NCBI GenBank assembly: GCA_001464455.1 | Contig: LNEI01000009.1 | Span: forward strand, 1-64,000 | DNA from: Acidobacteria bacterium Ga0077534 | GTDB taxonomy: Bacteria; Acidobacteriota; Blastocatellia; Pyrinomonadales; Pyrinomonadaceae | DNA length: 64,000 nucleotides | Direction of reading: 5' to 3' | In this document: in pieces, positions 10,327 to 43,420 of the stretch | Position numbering within the stretch: position 1 is the stretch's first letter | How the letters are laid out: every line of letters begins with the position of its first letter | The notes under the pieces: generated by a model | Seen by the model: only the letters and a program-made list of their open reading frames with translations | What the model was told of the DNA's origin: nothing | The model's database searches: none | Position numbers and translations under genes: made by a program

Positions 10327-12297
10327 TCATAATCTTAACTTGATACAGCGGTGGACAAGGTCAGCTGTTATCGGCGTTCCGTCATAGTTAAGGACCGATA
10401 CAAGCTTTGAAGAATCTGCTCCCAATTCGATCATCATCAAGCTGCGGAATTGGGCGTCGCGGTTTTGTTCAATGACAAAGATACGATCGTGCGTTTCTAC
10501 AAAGTCACGAAAAGATTTGCCAAACGGAAAAGCTCGAACTCGCATTGCGTCAAGGTATATTCCTTCTTCCGCAAGCAACTCCAGAGCCTCTTCCGCCGCA
10601 TATGTTGAGGTCCCGAAGTAGATGACTCCCAATTCTGCATTTCGAACATCGGATGATGAATCCTCTGAACGCACCGATTCAGGGTACGAAATTCGATACT
10701 CTTCATTCGAGTGAAACTCGGGCTGTGGTACAAGTTCCTTCGCCGTTTCCCACTTCTTTGCGAGGCGATCGACATTGCGGCGGTAGGCGTCTCCGTCTTC
10801 GGTGTAGACGCCGTATTCGTCACGGGACGAGCCGCGTGTGACGAATGCTCCGCGGGTCGCATGCGTTCCGGCGATGGTTCGGTATGGGATGCCGTCGTCG
10901 TCGATGTCGAGATAGCGGCCGAATTTGCCGCGAAACTGTTCGAGCGGTTCGCCAGCGGTCTCGTCGCTGCCGTCATCGGCATTCAAACCGGAGTTGCCAT
11001 CCAGCACGTCGTGGCCGTTGCCGTTCGAAGCAGTAATGGCTGCCTGAGCAGCATAGATCCGGTCCATCTGCTTTGCAGTCAGGACTTTGCCGCGATCGTA
11101 AGTCCGGGAATCGTCCCATACCAGCGGATCCGTGATGTGGTCGTTCATGCCTAGATCGAGGTCGGTCATCATAATGACGGGCGTTTGCAGGCGTTCGGCC
11201 AGGTCGAACGCATCGGCCGTCATCTCAAAACACTCTTTCGGACTTGCCGGAAACAGCAACGGGTGTTTTGTGTCACCATGTGATGCGTAGGCGGCCAGCA
11301 GGATGTCCGATTGCTGAGTTCGTGTCGGCATACCCGTTGACGGTCCAGTTCGCTGTACGTCGATCAGTACCGTAGGTACTTCTGCAAAATATCCGAGTCC
11401 CAAAAACTCGTTCATCAACGACACGCCGGGACCGCTGGTTGCTGTAAACGATCGAGCCCCATTCCACGAGGCTCCCATCACCATGCCGATCGCCGCTAGT
11501 TCGTCTTCGGCTTGGACGATCGCGTAGTTGTTTTTGCCGGTTTCGGGATCGACGCGGTACTTCGCAGCGTACTTGGCAAACGCGTCAACGACCGAGGTCG
11601 ACGGCGTGATCGGATACCAAGCCGCAACCGTCGCACCAGCGTAGACAGCGCCTAATCCGCACGCGGAATTGCCGCCGAACAAGATCTTATCGCCTAACAG
11701 ATCACGGCGTTCGACGCGGATGTTGAGCGGGCAATCGAAATTCTCACGGGCGTAATTTACACCGATGTTCAAAGCCCTAATATTTGGCTCGATCAGTTTT
11801 TCCTTTCCCTTGAACTGCTCTGCGATCTGCCCTTCGAGCACGGAAAATTCCAGATCAAGCAATGCCGATAAGGCGCCTATATAAATGATGTTCTTAAACA
11901 ATTGCCGCTGCCTCGCATCGGTAAACTCAGCGTTGCAGAGATTCATCAGCGGGATCGGGACGTGCGTTATGTCGTCGCGGTCGTAACCCGGCGGCAGAGG
12001 CTTCGACGAGTCGTAAAGAAAATAACCGCCGGCCATAACATCGGCGTAATCCTTTTTCATCGACTGCGGATTGACCGCGATCATCAGATCAACGCCTTCG
12101 CGGCGGCCGAGATGTCCTTTCTCTGAAACACGGACCTCGTACCATGTCGGCAGGCCCTGAATATTCGACGGAAAGATGTTCTTCGGCGTCACCGGCACGC
12201 CCATCCGAAACACCGCCTTAGTAAACAAAGCATTAGCCGACGCCGAACCGGTGCCGTTGACGTTTGCAAATCTAACTACGAAATCGTTGGTTTTCAT
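10327..12297 (-). CDS. korA: 2-oxoacid:ferredoxin oxidoreductase, fused gamma-alpha subunit (KorA-like)
   Basis: 656 residues in the fused arrangement: an N-terminal gamma domain (about 1-190; begins VVRFANVNGTGSASANALF) and an alpha domain (about 200-656) with the landmarks GGNSACGLGAVYAGA, YPITPSTS, VQAEDELAAIGMVMGAS and SGPGVSLMNEF. With the beta subunit it forms the ferredoxin-reducing 2-oxoacid dehydrogenase that can replace lipoate-dependent complexes in the citric acid cycle. A stretch near 430-455 (NGNGHDVLDGNSGLNADDG) is low-complexity and probably a surface insertion. The gene starts 6 bp after the ParE/RelE toxin stop, so the toxin-antitoxin pair shares or drives its transcript. 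Confidence 0.92.
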   Translation of the reverse strand: MKTNDFVVRFANVNGTGSASANALFTKAVFRMGVPVTPKNIFPSNIQGLPTWYEVRVSEKGHLGRREGVDLMIAVNPQSMKKDYADVMAGGYFLYDSSKPLPPGYDRDDITHVPIPLMNLCNAEFTDARQRQLFKNIIYIGALSALLDLEFSVLEGQIAEQFKGKEKLIEPNIRALNIGVNYARENFDCPLNIRVERRDLLGDKILFGGNSACGLGAVYAGATVAAWYPITPSTSVVDAFAKYAAKYRVDPETGKNNYAIVQAEDELAAIGMVMGASWNGARSFTATSGPGVSLMNEFLGLGYFAEVPTVLIDVQRTGPSTGMPTRTQQSDILLAAYASHGDTKHPLLFPASPKECFEMTADAFDLAERLQTPVIMMTDLDLGMNDHITDPLVWDDSRTYDRGKVLTAKQMDRIYAAQAAITASNGNGHDVLDGNSGLNADDGSDETAGEPLEQFRGKFGRYLDIDDDGIPYRTIAGTHATRGAFVTRGSSRDEYGVYTEDGDAYRRNVDRLAKKWETAKELVPQPEFHSNEEYRISYPESVRSEDSSSDVRNAELGVIYFGTSTYAAEEALELLAEEGIYLDAMRVRAFPFGKSFRDFVETHDRIFVIEQNRDAQFRSLMMIELGADSSKLVSVLNYDGTPITADLVHRCIKLRL

Positions 12298-14233: not shown

Positions 14234-14770
14234 TCACGGTCTAAGAGCCGACTGCGTTGTGTCTAAGGGAATTTTGGTTATTGATCCCGCGGAACGAATG
14301 GCGGCGAATATATCTGTCCCAAGCAAAACTATAAGGACGGCTGCGCACGCAATATCCACATAAACCGAGTTCTCAAGGAAGTCATATCGACTCCATATAT
14401 CACGAAGGTAGAACTTATAGTCAAGCATGTTGTAGTACTGAAATCCTGCTACTGACAGTGCTAGCAGTCGTACGACCAACCCTCCACTGCGGGAGCCGAA
14501 TATATGGCCTACAGCATACACTGCGAAGCAGATGCTGATTATGATGTACCAAATGTTGATCGACTGAAAATGATTGGGGCCGTGGGCCGCAAAGCCGTGT
14601 GTAGGGGGATCGGTAAAGACGCCATAGAGATAACCATATTTAGAGCTCAATCTACTCCAACTCAGAAAACATAGGCCGATACATGCCACCGCCAAGACGA
14701 GCGGTATCCACCTGCGGACTCGTAGCACCCATACTTCACTCAACATCGGACTAGACCGCGCCATTTCCAT
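14234..14770 (-). CDS. Four-helix membrane protein of unknown function
   Basis: 178 residues with about four hydrophobic segments: WIPLVLAVACIGLCFLSW, IWYIIISICFAVYAVGHIF, LVVRLLALSVAGFQYYNML and YVDIACAAVLIVLLGTDIF. It overlaps the end of the upstream flavoprotein gene by 20 bp, so translation is probably coupled; an ATG six bases further in (14764) is an equally good start. No family recognised. The coupling raises the possibility of a membrane partner for the redox protein, but nothing in the sequence itself shows this. Confidence 0.65.
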   Translation of the reverse strand: MEMARSSPMLSEVWVLRVRRWIPLVLAVACIGLCFLSWSRLSSKYGYLYGVFTDPPTHGFAAHGPNHFQSINIWYIIISICFAVYAVGHIFGSRSGGLVVRLLALSVAGFQYYNMLDYKFYLRDIWSRYDFLENSVYVDIACAAVLIVLLGTDIFAAIRSAGSITKIPLDTTQSALRP

Positions 14771-16709
14771 TCCTTTCTATCTGCACTAGATTAGCTACGA
14801 CCGTCGGGCCATATTTCACCTCGCCGGCTTTGCTGATGTTGTACCAGAAGGCCTGCATGTCCCAGGCGGCGGTGGGGCAGCGTTCGGCGCAGAGGCCGCA
14901 GTGGAGGCAGACGTCTTCGTCTTTGGCCATGATGCGGCCGGTTTTTAGGCCGTCGGCGACGTAGATATCCTGGGTTAGATTAAGGGCAGGCACCTTTAAG
15001 CGACTACGCAGATCGTCCTCTTCTCCGTCTCCGGTAAACGTGATGCAGCTGGTCGGGCAGATATCGACGCAGGCGTCGCACTCGATGCATTTGGGGGCGT
15101 CGAAGACCGTTTGTACGTCGCAGTTCAGGCAACGCTCGGCCTCTTTGTAGCCCGCAAGCGGGTCAAAACCGAGTTCTACTTCCTTTTTGCGGTCCTTGAG
15201 GGTGAATTCCTTCGGGGCTTGCGGCACGGCGAGGCGGTCGTACTCGTCGATCGCGCTGTCGTATGCCCATTCGTGAATGCCCATCTTCACCGAATGAAGA
15301 TTGACAAAGGGGGAGAGGCGTTCGGTCTTTACGTCTTTGCCGTTGCAGAAAAGGTCGATCGAGACCGCTGCCTGGTGGCCGTGGGCGACGGCGGTGATAA
15401 CGTTCTCCGGACCAAATGCCGCGTCGCCGCCGAAGAATACCTTTGGATGCGTTGATTGAAAACTAACTTTATCAACGACAGGCATTTCCCATTTGTCGAA
15501 CTCCACACCGCAGTCACGCTCGATCCACGGGAAGCTGTTCTCCTGACCGACGGCGATCAGGACATCGTCCGCCGGATAGAATACGTCGGGTTCGCCCGTC
15601 GGCACGAGGCTTCGCTTGCCGTTCTCGTCGTACTTGGCCTCTACCTTTTCGAAGGTCATGCCGACGAGCTTGAACGGAGAGCGGACGCTCTTGTCCGCAT
15701 CGCCGGTTCCTCCGGCGACACTGCTACCGTAACCTTGTCCAGCCGACGAAGCGTCGCCTGTGCGGACAGGAGTGTCTGCGCTCCGTTCGTAGACGAAGCT
15801 CTTTGGAACGTGATTGTCGATGATCGGGATGTCTTCGTGCTGAGCATCCTCTTTTTCCCAAGGGCTGGCTTTCATCGAGGCGAAGGGCGAGCGGACGATG
15901 ACCTTCACATCCTCGCCGCCGAGTCGACGCGCCGTGCGGCAGCAGTCCATCGCGGTGTTTCCGCCGCCGAGGACGATCACGCGTTTGCCGATCTTCGTCG
16001 TATGTTCGAAAGCGACAGAGCCGAGCCAGTTGATGCCGATGTGAATATTCGCATCGCCTTCCTTACGCCCCGGAAGGTCCGGAAGATCACGGCCCCGTGG
16101 AGCCCCAGTTCCAACGAAGACCGCGTCGTAATCCTGTTCGAGAATTTCCTTTAAGCTAGGAACATAATGCTTGAAATGGGTGTGGATCCCGAGCCGCAGA
16201 ATATAATCGACCTCTTCGTTCAAAACCTGCTCGGGTAAACGAAACGCCGGTATCTGCGAACGCATAAACCCGCCGCCTTTGATCTGTTCGTCAAATAAAT
16301 GGACTTCGTAACCCAACGGTGCCAGATCGCGGGCAACGGTCAAACTAGCGGGCCCGCCGCCGATCAACGCGACCTTTTTACCGTTCGACGGAAACGGCCC
16401 CTGGGGCATAAAAGGAATGACATCGTCTCGATTATCCGCCGCAACACGTTTCAGCCGGCAGATCGCGACGGGCTCTTCATCAACCTCGACACGGCCGCGA
16501 CGACACGCAGGTTCGCATGGACGATCGCATGTTCGCCCGAGAACGCCGGGAAACACATTCGAATCCCAGTTGATCATATACGCTTCCGTATATCGTCCGG
16601 CCGCGATCAATCGAATGTACTCGGGAACAGGCGTGTGTGCCGGACACGCGTACTGGCAATCGACAACCTTATGGAAATACTCGGGGTCCTTGATATCAGT
16701 TGGTTTCAA
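14751..16709 (-). CDS. GltD-like FAD/NAD(P) oxidoreductase with N- and C-terminal Fe-S domains
   Basis: 652 residues. The N terminus has the Fe-S domain of glutamate-synthase small subunits (CQYACPAHTPVPEYI, TCDRPCEPAC). An FAD site VALIGGGPASLTVARDL lies near 112 and an NAD(P) site VIVLGGGNTAMDCC near 245. The C terminus has two 4Fe-4S motifs, CIECDACVDICP and CLHCGLCAERCP. Such proteins pass electrons between NAD(P)H and ferredoxin-type carriers; beside korA/korB it may recycle the ferredoxin reduced by that enzyme (inference). Residues about 308-345 are a foreign in-frame segment (TPVRTGDASSAGQGYGSS) encoded by an inverted-repeat element, listed separately. It falls in a loop between conserved strands, so the enzyme may remain active. 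Confidence 0.88.
   Translation of the reverse strand: MKPTDIKDPEYFHKVVDCQYACPAHTPVPEYIRLIAAGRYTEAYMINWDSNVFPGVLGRTCDRPCEPACRRGRVEVDEEPVAICRLKRVAADNRDDVIPFMPQGPFPSNGKKVALIGGGPASLTVARDLAPLGYEVHLFDEQIKGGGFMRSQIPAFRLPEQVLNEEVDYILRLGIHTHFKHYVPSLKEILEQDYDAVFVGTGAPRGRDLPDLPGRKEGDANIHIGINWLGSVAFEHTTKIGKRVIVLGGGNTAMDCCRTARRLGGEDVKVIVRSPFASMKASPWEKEDAQHEDIPIIDNHVPKSFVYERSADTPVRTGDASSAGQGYGSSVAGGTGDADKSVRSPFKLVGMTFEKVEAKYDENGKRSLVPTGEPDVFYPADDVLIAVGQENSFPWIERDCGVEFDKWEMPVVDKVSFQSTHPKVFFGGDAAFGPENVITAVAHGHQAAVSIDLFCNGKDVKTERLSPFVNLHSVKMGIHEWAYDSAIDEYDRLAVPQAPKEFTLKDRKKEVELGFDPLAGYKEAERCLNCDVQTVFDAPKCIECDACVDICPTSCITFTGDGEEDDLRSRLKVPALNLTQDIYVADGLKTGRIMAKDEDVCLHCGLCAERCPTAAWDMQAFWYNISKAGEVKYGPTVVANLVQIERNGNGAV
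15675..15785. repeat. REP-like inverted-repeat element inserted in frame inside a coding gene
   Basis: Two imperfect inverted arms of about 30 bases (15675-15704 and 15751-15785) share, after reverse complementing one, the core CTCTTGTCCGCA / CTCCTGTCCGCA. They flank a small CGCCGG..CCGGCG hairpin (15701-15717). The element lies wholly within the GltD-like gene and keeps its frame. Confidence 0.7.
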
Positions 16710-29767: not shown

Positions 29768-30772
29768 ATGTCCGACCACCAAAAACGGTTAGAAGCTTTC
29801 CTCGATTCACGCTCTCAGCCCCGCGATCTCCAGTCGCTGACGGCGGATGCTTCGACGCGCGAGTATTTTAGGATCAGTTGGAACGGCTCGTCCGCGATCG
29901 CGTGCGTTTACCCGGAACCTTTCGACCCGACCAGCCAACCCTATCTCGACGTAACCAGGCTTTTCCACGCCGGCGGGCTTCCCGTGGCAGATGTTTACGA
30001 CTATGACGGCGATCAAGGCGTGATCGTTCAGGAAGACCTCGGCGACACGATCCTTCGCGAGGTCCTGCTCGAAACGGACGAAACGGACGCTAAGCGCAAA
30101 CTCGACGAGGCGATATCCCTGATCGCGCGGATCCAAACCGTCACTCAGAAGGCGTACGATACAAATTCCATCGCATCGAGGCTTAAGTTTGACGCGGAGA
30201 AGCTTCTCTGGGAACTGAATTTTTTTAAGGAGCATTACTTCACGACCTACAGAAAATCCCCGCTCACGCCGGACGAGGACGCCGAAATAAGCGCCGAATT
30301 TGTAACTTTAGCGTCGGAACTCGAGTCGTGTGCGACCGTGCTGTGTCACCGCGACTTTCATGCGGCCAATATCATGATCGACGGCCGCGGACAGATGCGG
30401 ATCATCGACCATCAAGACGCCCGGATCGGCTCACCCACGTACGATCTGGTCTCGCTGCTGCTCGATCGGATAACCGAACCGCCCTCACGCGAATGGCTCG
30501 GCGAGAAACGAGGTTATTTTTTGAGCGTGAGGCGACGGCTCGGGCTTCCGGCACTGGATGAAGACCAGTTCGCGAATGAATTTCGCTTACAGACGATCCA
30601 GCGGTGCCTAAAAGCCGCGGGAACGTTCTCCTTTCAGTCGGTAAATCGCGGAAAAACCTATTTTGTGCCCTTTATCAAGCCGATGTTCCGTATTTCCTTA
30701 CGCTCAGCCGAAAGCCTGGGCCGATTTCCCTTCATCCAAAAGATCCTCGCCCGAGCGATCTCACAGGATTGA
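29768..30772 (+). CDS. Aminoglycoside-phosphotransferase-fold sugar kinase, AmgK-like
   Basis: 334 residues. The N-terminal DASTREYFRI, the catalytic loop CHRDFHAANIMI (HxDxxxxN, about 197-208) and the metal-binding IIDHQDARIGSPTYDLVSLL are those of AmgK, the anomeric kinase that phosphorylates MurNAc and GlcNAc at C1. True aminoglycoside kinases lack the HQDA/GP-type context. The nucleotidyltransferase 6 bp upstream supports a cell-wall recycling pair. Cytoplasmic, no signal peptide. The stop is followed by the 21-bp repeat array. Confidence 0.85.
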   Translation: MSDHQKRLEAFLDSRSQPRDLQSLTADASTREYFRISWNGSSAIACVYPEPFDPTSQPYLDVTRLFHAGGLPVADVYDYDGDQGVIVQEDLGDTILREVLLETDETDAKRKLDEAISLIARIQTVTQKAYDTNSIASRLKFDAEKLLWELNFFKEHYFTTYRKSPLTPDEDAEISAEFVTLASELESCATVLCHRDFHAANIMIDGRGQMRIIDHQDARIGSPTYDLVSLLLDRITEPPSREWLGEKRGYFLSVRRRLGLPALDEDQFANEFRLQTIQRCLKAAGTFSFQSVNRGKTYFVPFIKPMFRISLRSAESLGRFPFIQKILARAISQD

Positions 30773-30818
30773 TCGCAGGCCCGCGACGGGTGATTCCGCA
30801 GCGAACAAATTCACGTGA

Positions 30819-31070
30819 CCTGAGCCCTCTGCCCCGTGACCTGAGCACTCTGCCCCGTGAGTTGAGTACTCTGCCCCATGACCTGAGCCCTCTGCCCCGC
30901 GAGTTGTGCACTCTGCCCCGCAACCTGAGCACTCTGCCCCGTGACCTGAGCACTCTGCCCCGTGGCCTGAGCACTCTGCCCCGTGGCCTGAGCACTCTGC
31001 CCCGTGACCTGAGCACTCTGCCCCGCGACCTGAGCACTGTGCCCGCAGGGCTGAGAGGTCTGCCCGCAGC
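30819..31070. repeat. 21-bp tandem repeat array, 12 units
   Basis: Twelve units of exactly 21 bases with core TGAGCACTCTGCCCC. Units vary at 1-5 positions; the last two are the most diverged. Because 21 is a multiple of 3, several frames on both strands stay open and would encode LSTLPRD-type or AQVTGQS-type repeats, but none has a proper start and the pattern is base-level, not codon-level. The array follows the AmgK-like gene by about 45 bases. A related array lies at 42032-42262. Confidence 0.9.
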
Positions 31071-31225
31071 AAAATAGTCGGAAACTCAAGTCACTAGTAA
31101 AGATCTTCCCGCGTGATTCGCAGAAATAGGCCGCCGGACACCGCATTGGTACTGGCGTTCGTGGAATTTGGGACTAAACTGTATTTTCGAGACGTCGGAT
31201 CGAAGCTAATGCGGGCGATGCATGC

Positions 31226-41611: not shown

Positions 41612-41637
41612 CGAAAGCGAAGATATTGAACCCAAAA

Positions 41638-42012
41638 GCCCGCGTAGCGGGCGAAATAATGTAGCCACGGGCGTGAGCCCGTGGAAAGAACGACCAAGAT
41701 CGTGGAAAAGGCGACCAAAACGATGATAGCCCACGTAGCGGGCGGCAGCGGACGGGGCGAAATGAAGTCAAACGAGTTCCAAAAGCCCGCGTAGCGGGCG
41801 GAAGCATGTAGCCACGGGCGTGAGCCCGTGGAAAGGGCGACCAAGATCGTGAAAGCCCGCGTAGCGGGCGACAGCGGGCCCCCCAAAATGTCCTCGCGTC
41901 AGTCCGAATATCAATAATTCCCGCTCTCGCCCGCTACGCGGGCTTTGTTTTACCTCTCCGCCGTTCCACGGGCTTACGCCCGTGGCTTTATGCTGCCGCC
42001 CGCTACGCGGGC
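41638..42012. repeat. Cluster of REP-like palindromes
   Basis: The palindrome GCCCGCGTAGCGGGC or a one-base variant occurs at 41638-41652, 41729-41743, 41785-41799 and 41855-41869 in one orientation, and at 41929-41943 and 41998-42012 in the other. A second palindrome, CCACGGGCGTGAGCCCGTGG, alternates with it at 41665-41684, 41812-41831 and (inverted, one variant) 41966-41985. The layout, four in one direction then two reversed, would fold into a large cruciform. No coding gene lies here. Confidence 0.9.
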
Positions 42013-42031
42013 TGACTGAGCCGCCCGCCGG

Positions 42032-42262
42032 GTTGAGCACTCTGCCCGCTGGGTTGAGCACTCTGCCCGCTGGGTTGAGCACTCTGTCCGCTGGGTTGAG
42101 CACTCTGCCCGCTGGGTTGACCACTTTGCCCGCTGGGTTGAGCACTCTGCCCGCTCGGTTGAGCACTCTGCCCGCTGGGTTGAGCATTCTGCCCGCCGGG
42201 TTGAGCACTCTGCCCGCTGGGTTGAGCACTCTGCCCGCTGGGTTGAGCACTCTGCCCGCTGC
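42032..42262. repeat. 21-bp tandem repeat array, 11 units
   Basis: Eleven units of exactly 21 bases with core TTGAGCACTCTGCCCGC; eight differ from consensus by at most one base, so the array is more homogeneous than its relative at 30819-31070. Open frames cross it on both strands (LSTLPAG, AQPSGQS) but have no supportable start. The last unit of both arrays is followed by GCAAA. Confidence 0.92.
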
Positions 42263-42295
42263 AAATTCGACAAAATCCTTGTAAATATGACCGGC

Positions 42296-42315
42296 TTGGC
42301 ATAGAATTTTGCCAA
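42296..42315. promoter_or_regulatory. Dyad upstream of the unknown 234-residue gene
   Basis: TTGGCA, eight bases, then TGCCAA: a perfect 6-bp dyad 35 bases before the start codon, in an A+T-rich promoter-like stretch. It may be an operator. Confidence 0.35.
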
Positions 42316-43054: not shown

Positions 43055-43420
43055 CCGGGCGCCATTCCAGAAAAGCCCGCGTAGCGGGCGAAATAATGTA
43101 GCCACGGGCGTAAGCCCGTGGGAAAGGCGAGTAGTTTCATTCAAGCCCGCGTAGCGGGCGACAGAGGGCAATAGAAATGTCGGCACGAATTCCGGTCGCC
43201 GCTGCACGCCGTTGTCACCCGCTTCGCGGGTTCTGTCGTAACTCGCCGCCATTTGCATACCTTTACCTCGCACGGCTTGAAACTTGTCATCCGAAGTCTC
43301 GTCGGTTGCATCTAAATCGGTAAAGGCTATATCGCAGGGTTTAAAAGATGGCCTTTGTTTGTTCTTGTACAGACTTTTGCCCCGGGACGTAATAGTCTGA
43401 GGGCGGGAAGGAGAATCGAT
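43055..43420. repeat. Second REP-like palindrome cluster (366-base gap)
   Basis: GCCCGCGTAGCGGGC at 43075-43089 and 43145-43159, CCACGGGCGTAAGCCCGTGG at 43102-43121, and a CCCGCTTCGCGGG variant near 43219. These are the same sequences as in the cluster at 41638-42012, so the gene between is bracketed. The remainder to 43420 shows no gene. Confidence 0.85.

What the first reader, a model, noticed from the sequence alone, without database searches (positions are those of the whole stretch)
15675..15785. Palindromic element inserted in frame inside a GltD-like flavoprotein
An imperfect inverted-repeat element of about 111 bases sits inside a conserved enzyme gene and is translated as 37 extra residues in a loop. 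This resembles the protein-coding palindromic elements known from Rickettsia, which are rare elsewhere. A second case occurs in this window in an unrelated gene, so insertion into coding sequence may be a habit of this genome's elements.
Basis: partly seen in the sequence, partly recalled or inferred. Interest (0 to 1): 0.72.

Follow-up and report, generated by a model that had tools for sequence, protein, structure and literature searches.

The report
In-gene REP elements and their transposase
A small foldable DNA element sits, apparently translated in frame, inside an enzyme gene of an uncultured acidobacterium; its relatives do the same in many housekeeping genes across the genus, and in several related species even the transposase gene of this kind of element lies in frame inside host enzymes.

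Summary
Window 15675-15785(-) is an inverted pair of REP-like hairpins (GGAG head) read as 37 residues at a beta-hairpin tip of a GltD-like flavoprotein; 67 of 80 homologues have no insert. The hairpin occurs 23 times in this genome, reversed-pattern control 0. Of 14 elements here 11 are in frame inside genes; in 8 genomes of the genus (Pyrinomonadaceae) 67 of 101 copies are in frame and 1 changes frame (a stricter rule decided far fewer). The GltD site is a hot spot: 16 of 21 genus members carry inserts there, of several types. New: 11 REP-type transposases (RAYTs), one side of a branch in the tree, lie in frame inside acetyl-CoA-synthetase-like genes (9) or priA (2) of relatives. One of 11 has an ATG near its start, against 20 of 20 free RAYTs; dN/dS is low in the two of six pairs that could be measured. 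Coding REPs are known (PMC3733652); I found no report of nested RAYTs (ten searches). The window's genome has none. Translation is inferred, not shown.

The parts
15675..15785 (-). in-frame insert, 37 codons (RSADTPVRTGDASSAGQGYGSSVAGGTGDADKSVRSP)
15762..15784 (-). outer REP-like hairpin, GGAG head
15676..15698 (+). outer REP-like hairpin, inverted partner (3 mismatches to the consensus used)
15744..15756 (-). inner hairpin X (CGACGCTTCGTCG)
15700..15718 (-). inner hairpin Y (TCGCCGGAGGAACCGGCGA)
14751..16709 (-). host gene: GltD/NfnA-like NAD(P)-binding FeS flavoprotein, 652 aa
10327..12297 (-). second host gene in the window: KorA-like 2-oxoacid:ferredoxin oxidoreductase subunit (name recalled from the sequence; not scanned by a library)
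10633..10713 (-). insert of another type in the KorA-like gene, residues 529-555, at the site where relatives carry family-A elements (L135, L191)
10936..11031 (-). further lineage-specific stretch in the KorA-like gene, residues 423-454 (11 of 16 homologues with both anchors have 1 residue between them)

Best explanation
The element is a non-autonomous REP dimer (REPIN/BIME-like) of a RAYT-type single-strand transposition system. It has inserted into the tip of a beta-hairpin of a conserved enzyme and is tolerated, because its length, its lack of stops in one frame and its neutral, linker-like peptide leave the host protein readable. Shown by sequence: repeat family; clean gap; in-frame placement in many genes; one preferred reading frame; reuse of the same sites by different inserts; in relatives, RAYT genes with the same kind of ends lying in frame inside ACS-like and priA genes, grouping together in a tree, with the transposase part under purifying selection in two measurable pairs. 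Inferred: that this RAYT group mobilises these elements; that insertion is into single-stranded DNA and blind to frame, selection removing the rest; that the fused proteins are made and work; that the nested transposase is expressed by translation of its host.
For: Clean gap in 67 of 80 homologues. 23 hairpins against 0 control. Of 101 copies from 8 genomes: 67 in frame, 1 frame-changed, 25 intergenic or at gene ends, 5 between opposite strands, 3 at contig ends; 67 of the 68 with same-strand coding flanks are in frame, P 5e-31 against 1/3 (the stricter rule gave 32 in frame and 2 in different frames). In-frame dimers: length mod 3 = 1 in 46 and 2 in 9 of 55; 20 non-coding dimers: 5, 8 and 7 for 1, 2 and 0. 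Used frame: net charge -1.2 and Cys 0.16 per 100 residues; the other frames of the same 46 have stops in 30 and 32, and one has 9.5 Cys per 100. Gaps against solved homologues at the insert: ALDH 4v3f, TrmFO 3g5q, ACS 8rpk. Nested RAYTs; one side of a branch in a 32-row tree, 93/92, in 96% of 200 bootstrap trees; dN/dS 0.087 and 0.039; ATG near the start in 1 of 11 nested against 20 of 20 free. Ends match: outside ACS, 8 of 8 listed G022 copies carry GGACC as two of the three hairpins at its RAYT do; 21 of 23 G004 copies outside priA carry the T of its RAYT ends, a base seen in 5 of 46 hits in G010.
Against: No nested RAYT in the window's genome: all 10 of its Y1_Tnp matches lie in open frames of 84-256 aa and its two matches to the nested group are 43-45% identical and free, so its elements lack a shown mobiliser there. 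The head is GGAG (GGAC or GGAA in relatives), not the GTAG of the defined REP superfamily. No target consensus seen in 75 dimers. Some insertions are not benign: the ilvD-like copy (L014) changes frame, and the genome's own ACS-like gene changes frame at site 2 beside another repeat; these may be true breaks or assembly errors. The in-frame count depends on the rule (against 39), and the rule errs: one end of the priA-nested RAYT was classed as intergenic. The ACS-like hosts have a 36-39% paralogue. The branch that holds the nested RAYTs is not in the tree's best support class, and the tree is unrooted. No expression data. The AlphaFold model is weak overall (mean pLDDT 55.5).
Confidence: 0.82

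Rival explanations
1. The inserts are recruited, functional loops kept because the peptide helps the host enzymes.
For: Inserts that look orthologous persist between species. The used frame is linker-like.
Against: Pooled dN/dS of four such inserts (G010-G019) is 0.69 (167 codons) against 0.04 in 640 flanking codons; two further pairs, not pooled, have dN/dS of about 0.4 (TrmFO, G020-G019) and 0.9 (AsnB-like): the peptide drifts. Different insert types occupy one site in sister species.
Confidence: 0.1
2. Survivorship only: elements land everywhere, intergenic copies decay beyond recognition, in-gene copies last.
For: Only copies close to the consensus were counted; purifying selection on hosts protects in-gene copies from indels. 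Decayed copies were not searched for.
Against: Non-coding copies found are also near the consensus, though they were chosen for that. Silent sites inside four shared inserts differ less than in the flanks (dS 0.087 against 0.376; AsnB-like 0.115 against 1.33), which fits young or homogenised copies. Family B of the same genome, which flanks a free RAYT, looked more intergenic by eye, with at least one copy (L017) inside a long open frame (not scored). Does not explain nested RAYTs.
Confidence: 0.25
3. An element of the Rickettsia RPE lineage without a transposase of its own.
For: Same behaviour: palindromic, in frame, several families (PMC3733652 passages; lengths of RPEs recalled).
Against: R. 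conorii RPE sequences end in CGTC according to PMC3733652, absent here; RAYTs with the same kind of ends exist in relatives. Sequence comparison with RPEs was not done.
Confidence: 0.05
4. Ordinary lineage-specific loop, or assembly artefact.
For: Many of the named relatives are metagenome assemblies; two frame changes in the own genome.
Against: Repeat family with 0 control hits; different genomes carry different family-A copies at the same sites with intact ORFs; purifying selection across the fusions.
Confidence: 0.02

Closest known systems
Intragenic GTAG/CGTC REPs (Di Nocera et al. 2013, PMC3733652; abstract, found passages and section 15 read)
   Same: REPs inside ORFs, more than half of the inserts dimers or groups coding 20-30 aa, tRNA synthetase genes among hosts; different REPs at about the same recB site in two Xanthomonas.
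   Different: Head GGAG instead of GTAG/CGTC; two thirds of the copies examined here are in frame in genes, where most REPs there are intergenic; several insert types at one site across a genus; RAYT itself nested in frame.
Rickettsia palindromic elements (RPE; Ogata et al. 2002, known here only through PMC3733652 and recall; the paper is not held)
   Same: Palindromic repeats in frame inside functional genes, several families.
   Different: Other head; PMC3733652 finds no dedicated transposase for the CGTC class; here RAYTs carry matching ends.
RAYT/REPtron systems (Nunvar et al. 2010, PMC2817692; found passages read)
   Same: IS200/IS605-related transposase ORF flanked by two inverted REPs.
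   Different: Described there as ORFs of their own; the group here lies within host ORFs and mostly lacks a nearby ATG.
Inteins with homing endonuclease (recalled)
   Same: A mobile-element enzyme translated inside a conserved host enzyme at recurrent sites.
   Different: No splicing domain found by Pfam at E<=1e-5 in four fusions; the insert is expected to stay in the protein.

Membership tests
RAYT-associated REP (REPIN/BIME) | short hairpin with 5' head, present in many copies | tested here: met
   23 hits, control 0; head GGAG
RAYT-associated REP (REPIN/BIME) | arranged as inverted pairs | tested here: met
   of 101 copies, 75 non-edge groups have two or more hairpins, 73 of them one inverted pair
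RAYT-associated REP (REPIN/BIME) | cognate RAYT flanked by the same REP in inverted orientation | tested here: met
   in relatives only: G010, G004, G022 from DNA; G048, G046 from the encoded ends
RAYT-associated REP (REPIN/BIME) | cognate RAYT in the window's own genome | tested here: not met
   two free RAYTs at 43-45% identity; L059 has related ends GGAGCGCGGGCATCCTGCCCGC
GTAG REP superfamily | GTAG (or GT[AG]G) head | tested here: not met
   GGAG/GGAC/GGAA; bases before it not conserved
Rickettsia RPE | in-frame insertion in conserved genes, absent from homologues | tested here: met
   that the proteins function was not tested
Rickettsia RPE | CGTC head, or sequence relation to RPE families | tested here: inconclusive
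   head differs; sequence relation not compared
Intein | splicing (Hint) domain around the nuclease | tested here: not met
   Pfam at E<=1e-5 lists host domains and Y1_Tnp only, 4 fusions of 11
RAYT (nested proteins) | Y1_Tnp domain with HUH motif | tested here: met
   Y1_Tnp over cut-off in 4 of 4 fusions scanned; MPNH[AV]H in all 11; the catalytic Tyr was not tested

The most novel reading that the evidence does not exclude
A transposon lineage that lives obligately in frame inside housekeeping genes: its transposase has lost its own start, is made only as an internal domain of host enzymes (ACS-like, PriA), moves between host genes while keeping frame, and seeds coding REP dimers in dozens of genes. 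The host cannot silence it by stop or frameshift without losing the enzyme.
Probability: 0.45. Interest if true: 0.92.

Novelty: new variant of a known kind. Interest (0 to 1): 0.8.

Why it matters
It offers a natural set of loop and domain insertions in conserved enzymes, with empty, small-insert and transposase-bearing states among sister species. It makes directly testable how REP elements move, whether RAYTs are active transposases, and whether mobile DNA can survive by coding itself into host proteins without splicing.

Tried and rejected
A first coding-score cut of 0.12 on the flanks (98 copies judged, 32 in frame, 2 same strand in different frames, 64 other) lay near the mean of true coding windows (0.13) and missed plain cases; the rule was loosened to the best stop-free frame with positive score, where the two different-frame cases (L157, L158) became intergenic/end. 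Both are reported. Codon-position pattern of substitutions in the arms: not informative. Target-site consensus: none found. Rfam at gathering scores: no match to the element; Acido-Lenti-1 elsewhere in the window. AlphaFold model of the GltD-like protein: only its local result is used (strands 300-309 and 346-360 around residues 313-342 with pLDDT under 50). A hypothesis that the elements keep an open frame for themselves was dropped: non-coding dimers show no length rule. dN/dS for four of six RAYT pairs failed because dS was saturated. The -20..+1 codon range for the ATG test was chosen after seeing the lists, and the rows are relatives, so its P value is only a guide.

Full report
What is there. 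The window lies in a 4.2 Mb assembly of the Pyrinomonadaceae, Acidobacteriota, judged by its closest named relatives. The gene at 14751-16709(-) is a GltD/NfnA-like flavoprotein. Inside it, 15675-15785 reads RSADTPVRTGDASSAGQGYGSSVAGGTGDADKSVRSP. The DNA is an inverted pair of 23-base hairpins with GGAG heads around two smaller hairpins and folds far better than shuffles.

It is an insertion. Among 80 homologues fetched from the genome collection (499 relatives found, best 80 kept), 67 have exactly 43 residues in the aligned stretch, a plain turn such as VVENGKLKGM; 13 have inserts, all titled Acidobacteria or Pyrinomonadaceae. The local prediction places the insert as a disordered tip between two strands (weak model overall).

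The site is a hot spot. Of 21 genus members whose sequence covers the site (one partial locus, L084, does not), 5 are empty, 4 carry the same family as the window (A) and 1 an A-like remnant, and 11 carry other inserts at the same turn (families told apart by eye). One of these other types (family E, seen in G012 and G019) is itself a dispersed repeat: 23 copies in this genome, 44, 24 and 39 in G012, G019 and G010, reversed control 0. The remaining types were not counted genome-wide.

Family A prefers coding sequence. In this genome 14 elements were grouped: 11 in frame in genes, 2 intergenic, 1 with a change of frame in an ilvD-like gene. Host genes by Pfam are methionine synthase, aldehyde dehydrogenase, GH92, molybdopterin oxidoreductase, AMP-binding (ACS-like), ArgRS, TatD, GidA/TrmFO, LeuRS and AIR synthase, plus the GltD-like gene. 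Eight of the 22 genomes with hits were examined; for the seven relatives all listed hits at up to 2 mismatches were taken, for the own genome up to 3. Their 101 copies were judged by a codon score of the flanks that does not look at the element: 67 in frame, 1 frame-changed, 25 intergenic or gene end, 5 between opposite strands, 3 at contig ends. By genome, in frame: G000 11 of 14, G010 22 of 26, G004 13 of 17, G019 7 of 10, G016 5 of 9, G002 3 of 6, G020 4 of 12, G021 2 of 7; so the habit varies. Four of the 101 are ends of nested RAYTs, one of them misjudged as intergenic. A stricter cut gave 32 in frame, 2 in different frames and 64 undecided. The element is read in one frame in 46 of 55 in-frame dimers, and its length is then 1 mod 3; 20 non-coding dimers show no such rule. 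The used frame is neutral and linker-like; the other two have stops in 30 and 32 of 46 and are strongly basic, one of them rich in Cys. Solved homologues show gaps at the insert in ALDH, TrmFO and ACS. Some host sites recur between species, at times with the element in the opposite orientation (GH92 and the molybdopterin oxidoreductase), which means independent insertion or flipping through the inverted arms.

The transposase. RAYT-type genes (Y1_Tnp) are common here: 10 matches in this genome, 92 in ten relatives. With the RAYT of G010 as query, 41 genus genomes gave 48 matches in 28 genomes. The best 11 (51-100% identity) lie inside host genes. The other 37 (up to 48%) lie in open frames of 98-598 aa; only a few of these were read in full. 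The one listed at 598 (G016) sits in a stop-to-stop frame of 202 aa when read, and one distant RAYT (L376) is joined to the end of a SpeD-like protein (name recalled). Hosts of the 11, read in full: ACS-like gene at site 2 in G010, G048, G023, G047, G045; at site 1 in G022, G003, G017 and G042 (contig end); priA in G004 and G046. Ten of the 11 open frames are 826-1064 aa, G042's is 361. Pfam finds host domains on one or both sides of Y1_Tnp in the four fusions scanned. The 11 form one side of a branch in a tree of 32 RAYT cores (93/92, just under the best support class; 96% of 200 bootstrap trees; 0 of 500 shuffles as clustered), and the priA pair groups with three ACS site-2 rows (99/96), so the lineage has changed host gene, in a direction that the unrooted tree cannot tell. 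Sixteen of the 48 matches are not in the tree. An ATG between 20 codons before and 1 after the core start is present in 20 of 20 free RAYTs and 1 of 11 nested ones (P 2.5e-7; range chosen after the fact); two further nested ones have a GTG there. dN/dS of the nested RAYT is 0.087 and 0.039 in the two of six pairs that could be measured, at high dS (1.1 and 2.0). The PriA DNA-binding domain occurs once each in G004 and G046, in the nested gene (assemblies 95 and 94% complete). In eight of nine ACS carriers the host is the only match of about 60% or more; G042 has a second copy; all nine also have a 36-39% paralogue.

What keeps the elements. In four shared inserts (G010-G019) the peptide is nearly free to change (dN/dS 0.69 against 0.04 in flanks), while silent sites in the insert differ less than in the flanks (dS 0.087 against 0.376); two further pairs, not pooled, gave about 0.4 and 0.9 with dS 0.163 against 0.846 and 0.115 against 1.33 (host names there partly recalled). 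So the dimers look like tolerated DNA passengers, young or homogenised, whereas the nested transposase is a conserved protein.

Mechanism, with status. Shown by sequence: repeat, insertion, frame, sites, nested RAYT group, selection on the RAYT in two pairs. Likely: RAYTs of this group mobilise family A, since in G022 and G004 the dispersed copies carry the same odd base as the ends of the RAYT (8 of 8 listed outside ACS, 5 of 17 hits unlisted; 21 of 23 outside priA). Inferred: insertion through single-stranded DNA, blind to frame, with selection leaving in-frame cases; translation of RAYT as an inner domain of its host.

Limits. This genome has no nested RAYT, and its own ACS-like gene changes frame at site 2 beside a family-E insert, so insertions are not always harmless, or the assembly errs there. 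No expression data exist here. Papers: searches listed PMC3733652 on coding REPs but, in the rows shown, no report of a RAYT nested in frame in host enzymes; only two papers were opened, and preprints and most subscription journals are not held.

Noticed in passing
window 41637-41684 and 43074-43121 (-): Two Rfam Acido-Lenti-1 RNA matches within a cluster of inverted GCCCGCGTAGCGGGC/CCACGGGC repeats; a RAYT elsewhere in the genome (L053) has GTAGCCCACGGC hairpins on both sides, so this 'RNA family' may be a REP.
   Followed up: no
window 30758-31107 and 41992-42299: Two arrays with a 21-base period, related to each other.
   Followed up: no
L258 4738-5600; L259 4738-5700: A copy of the end of the GltD-like gene (about 30-40 codons) lies 0.7-0.9 kb downstream of its real end, with a short addiction-module-like ORF (recalled resemblance) between in L258: perhaps integration at the 3' end of the gene.
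   Followed up: partly
L376 (G012:C5) 1535-2572: A distant RAYT is joined in frame to the C-terminus of a SpeD-like protein.
   Followed up: no
L374 (G042:C390) 1-1083: ACS-like N-terminus, RAYT, then directly the site-3 sequence: internal loss or assembly join; a second ACS-like copy lies on another contig.
   Followed up: no
L256 (G000:C27:249000-253500): Family B REP pairs flank a free RAYT on both sides, a classical REPtron; next to it an RluD-like gene (name recalled) carries a family-E insert in frame.
   Followed up: partly
L381 (G000:C18:310800-316800) about 1990-2160: The own genome's ACS-like gene has a family-E insert at site 2 with a change of frame, and a further insert type at site 3.
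   Followed up: partly
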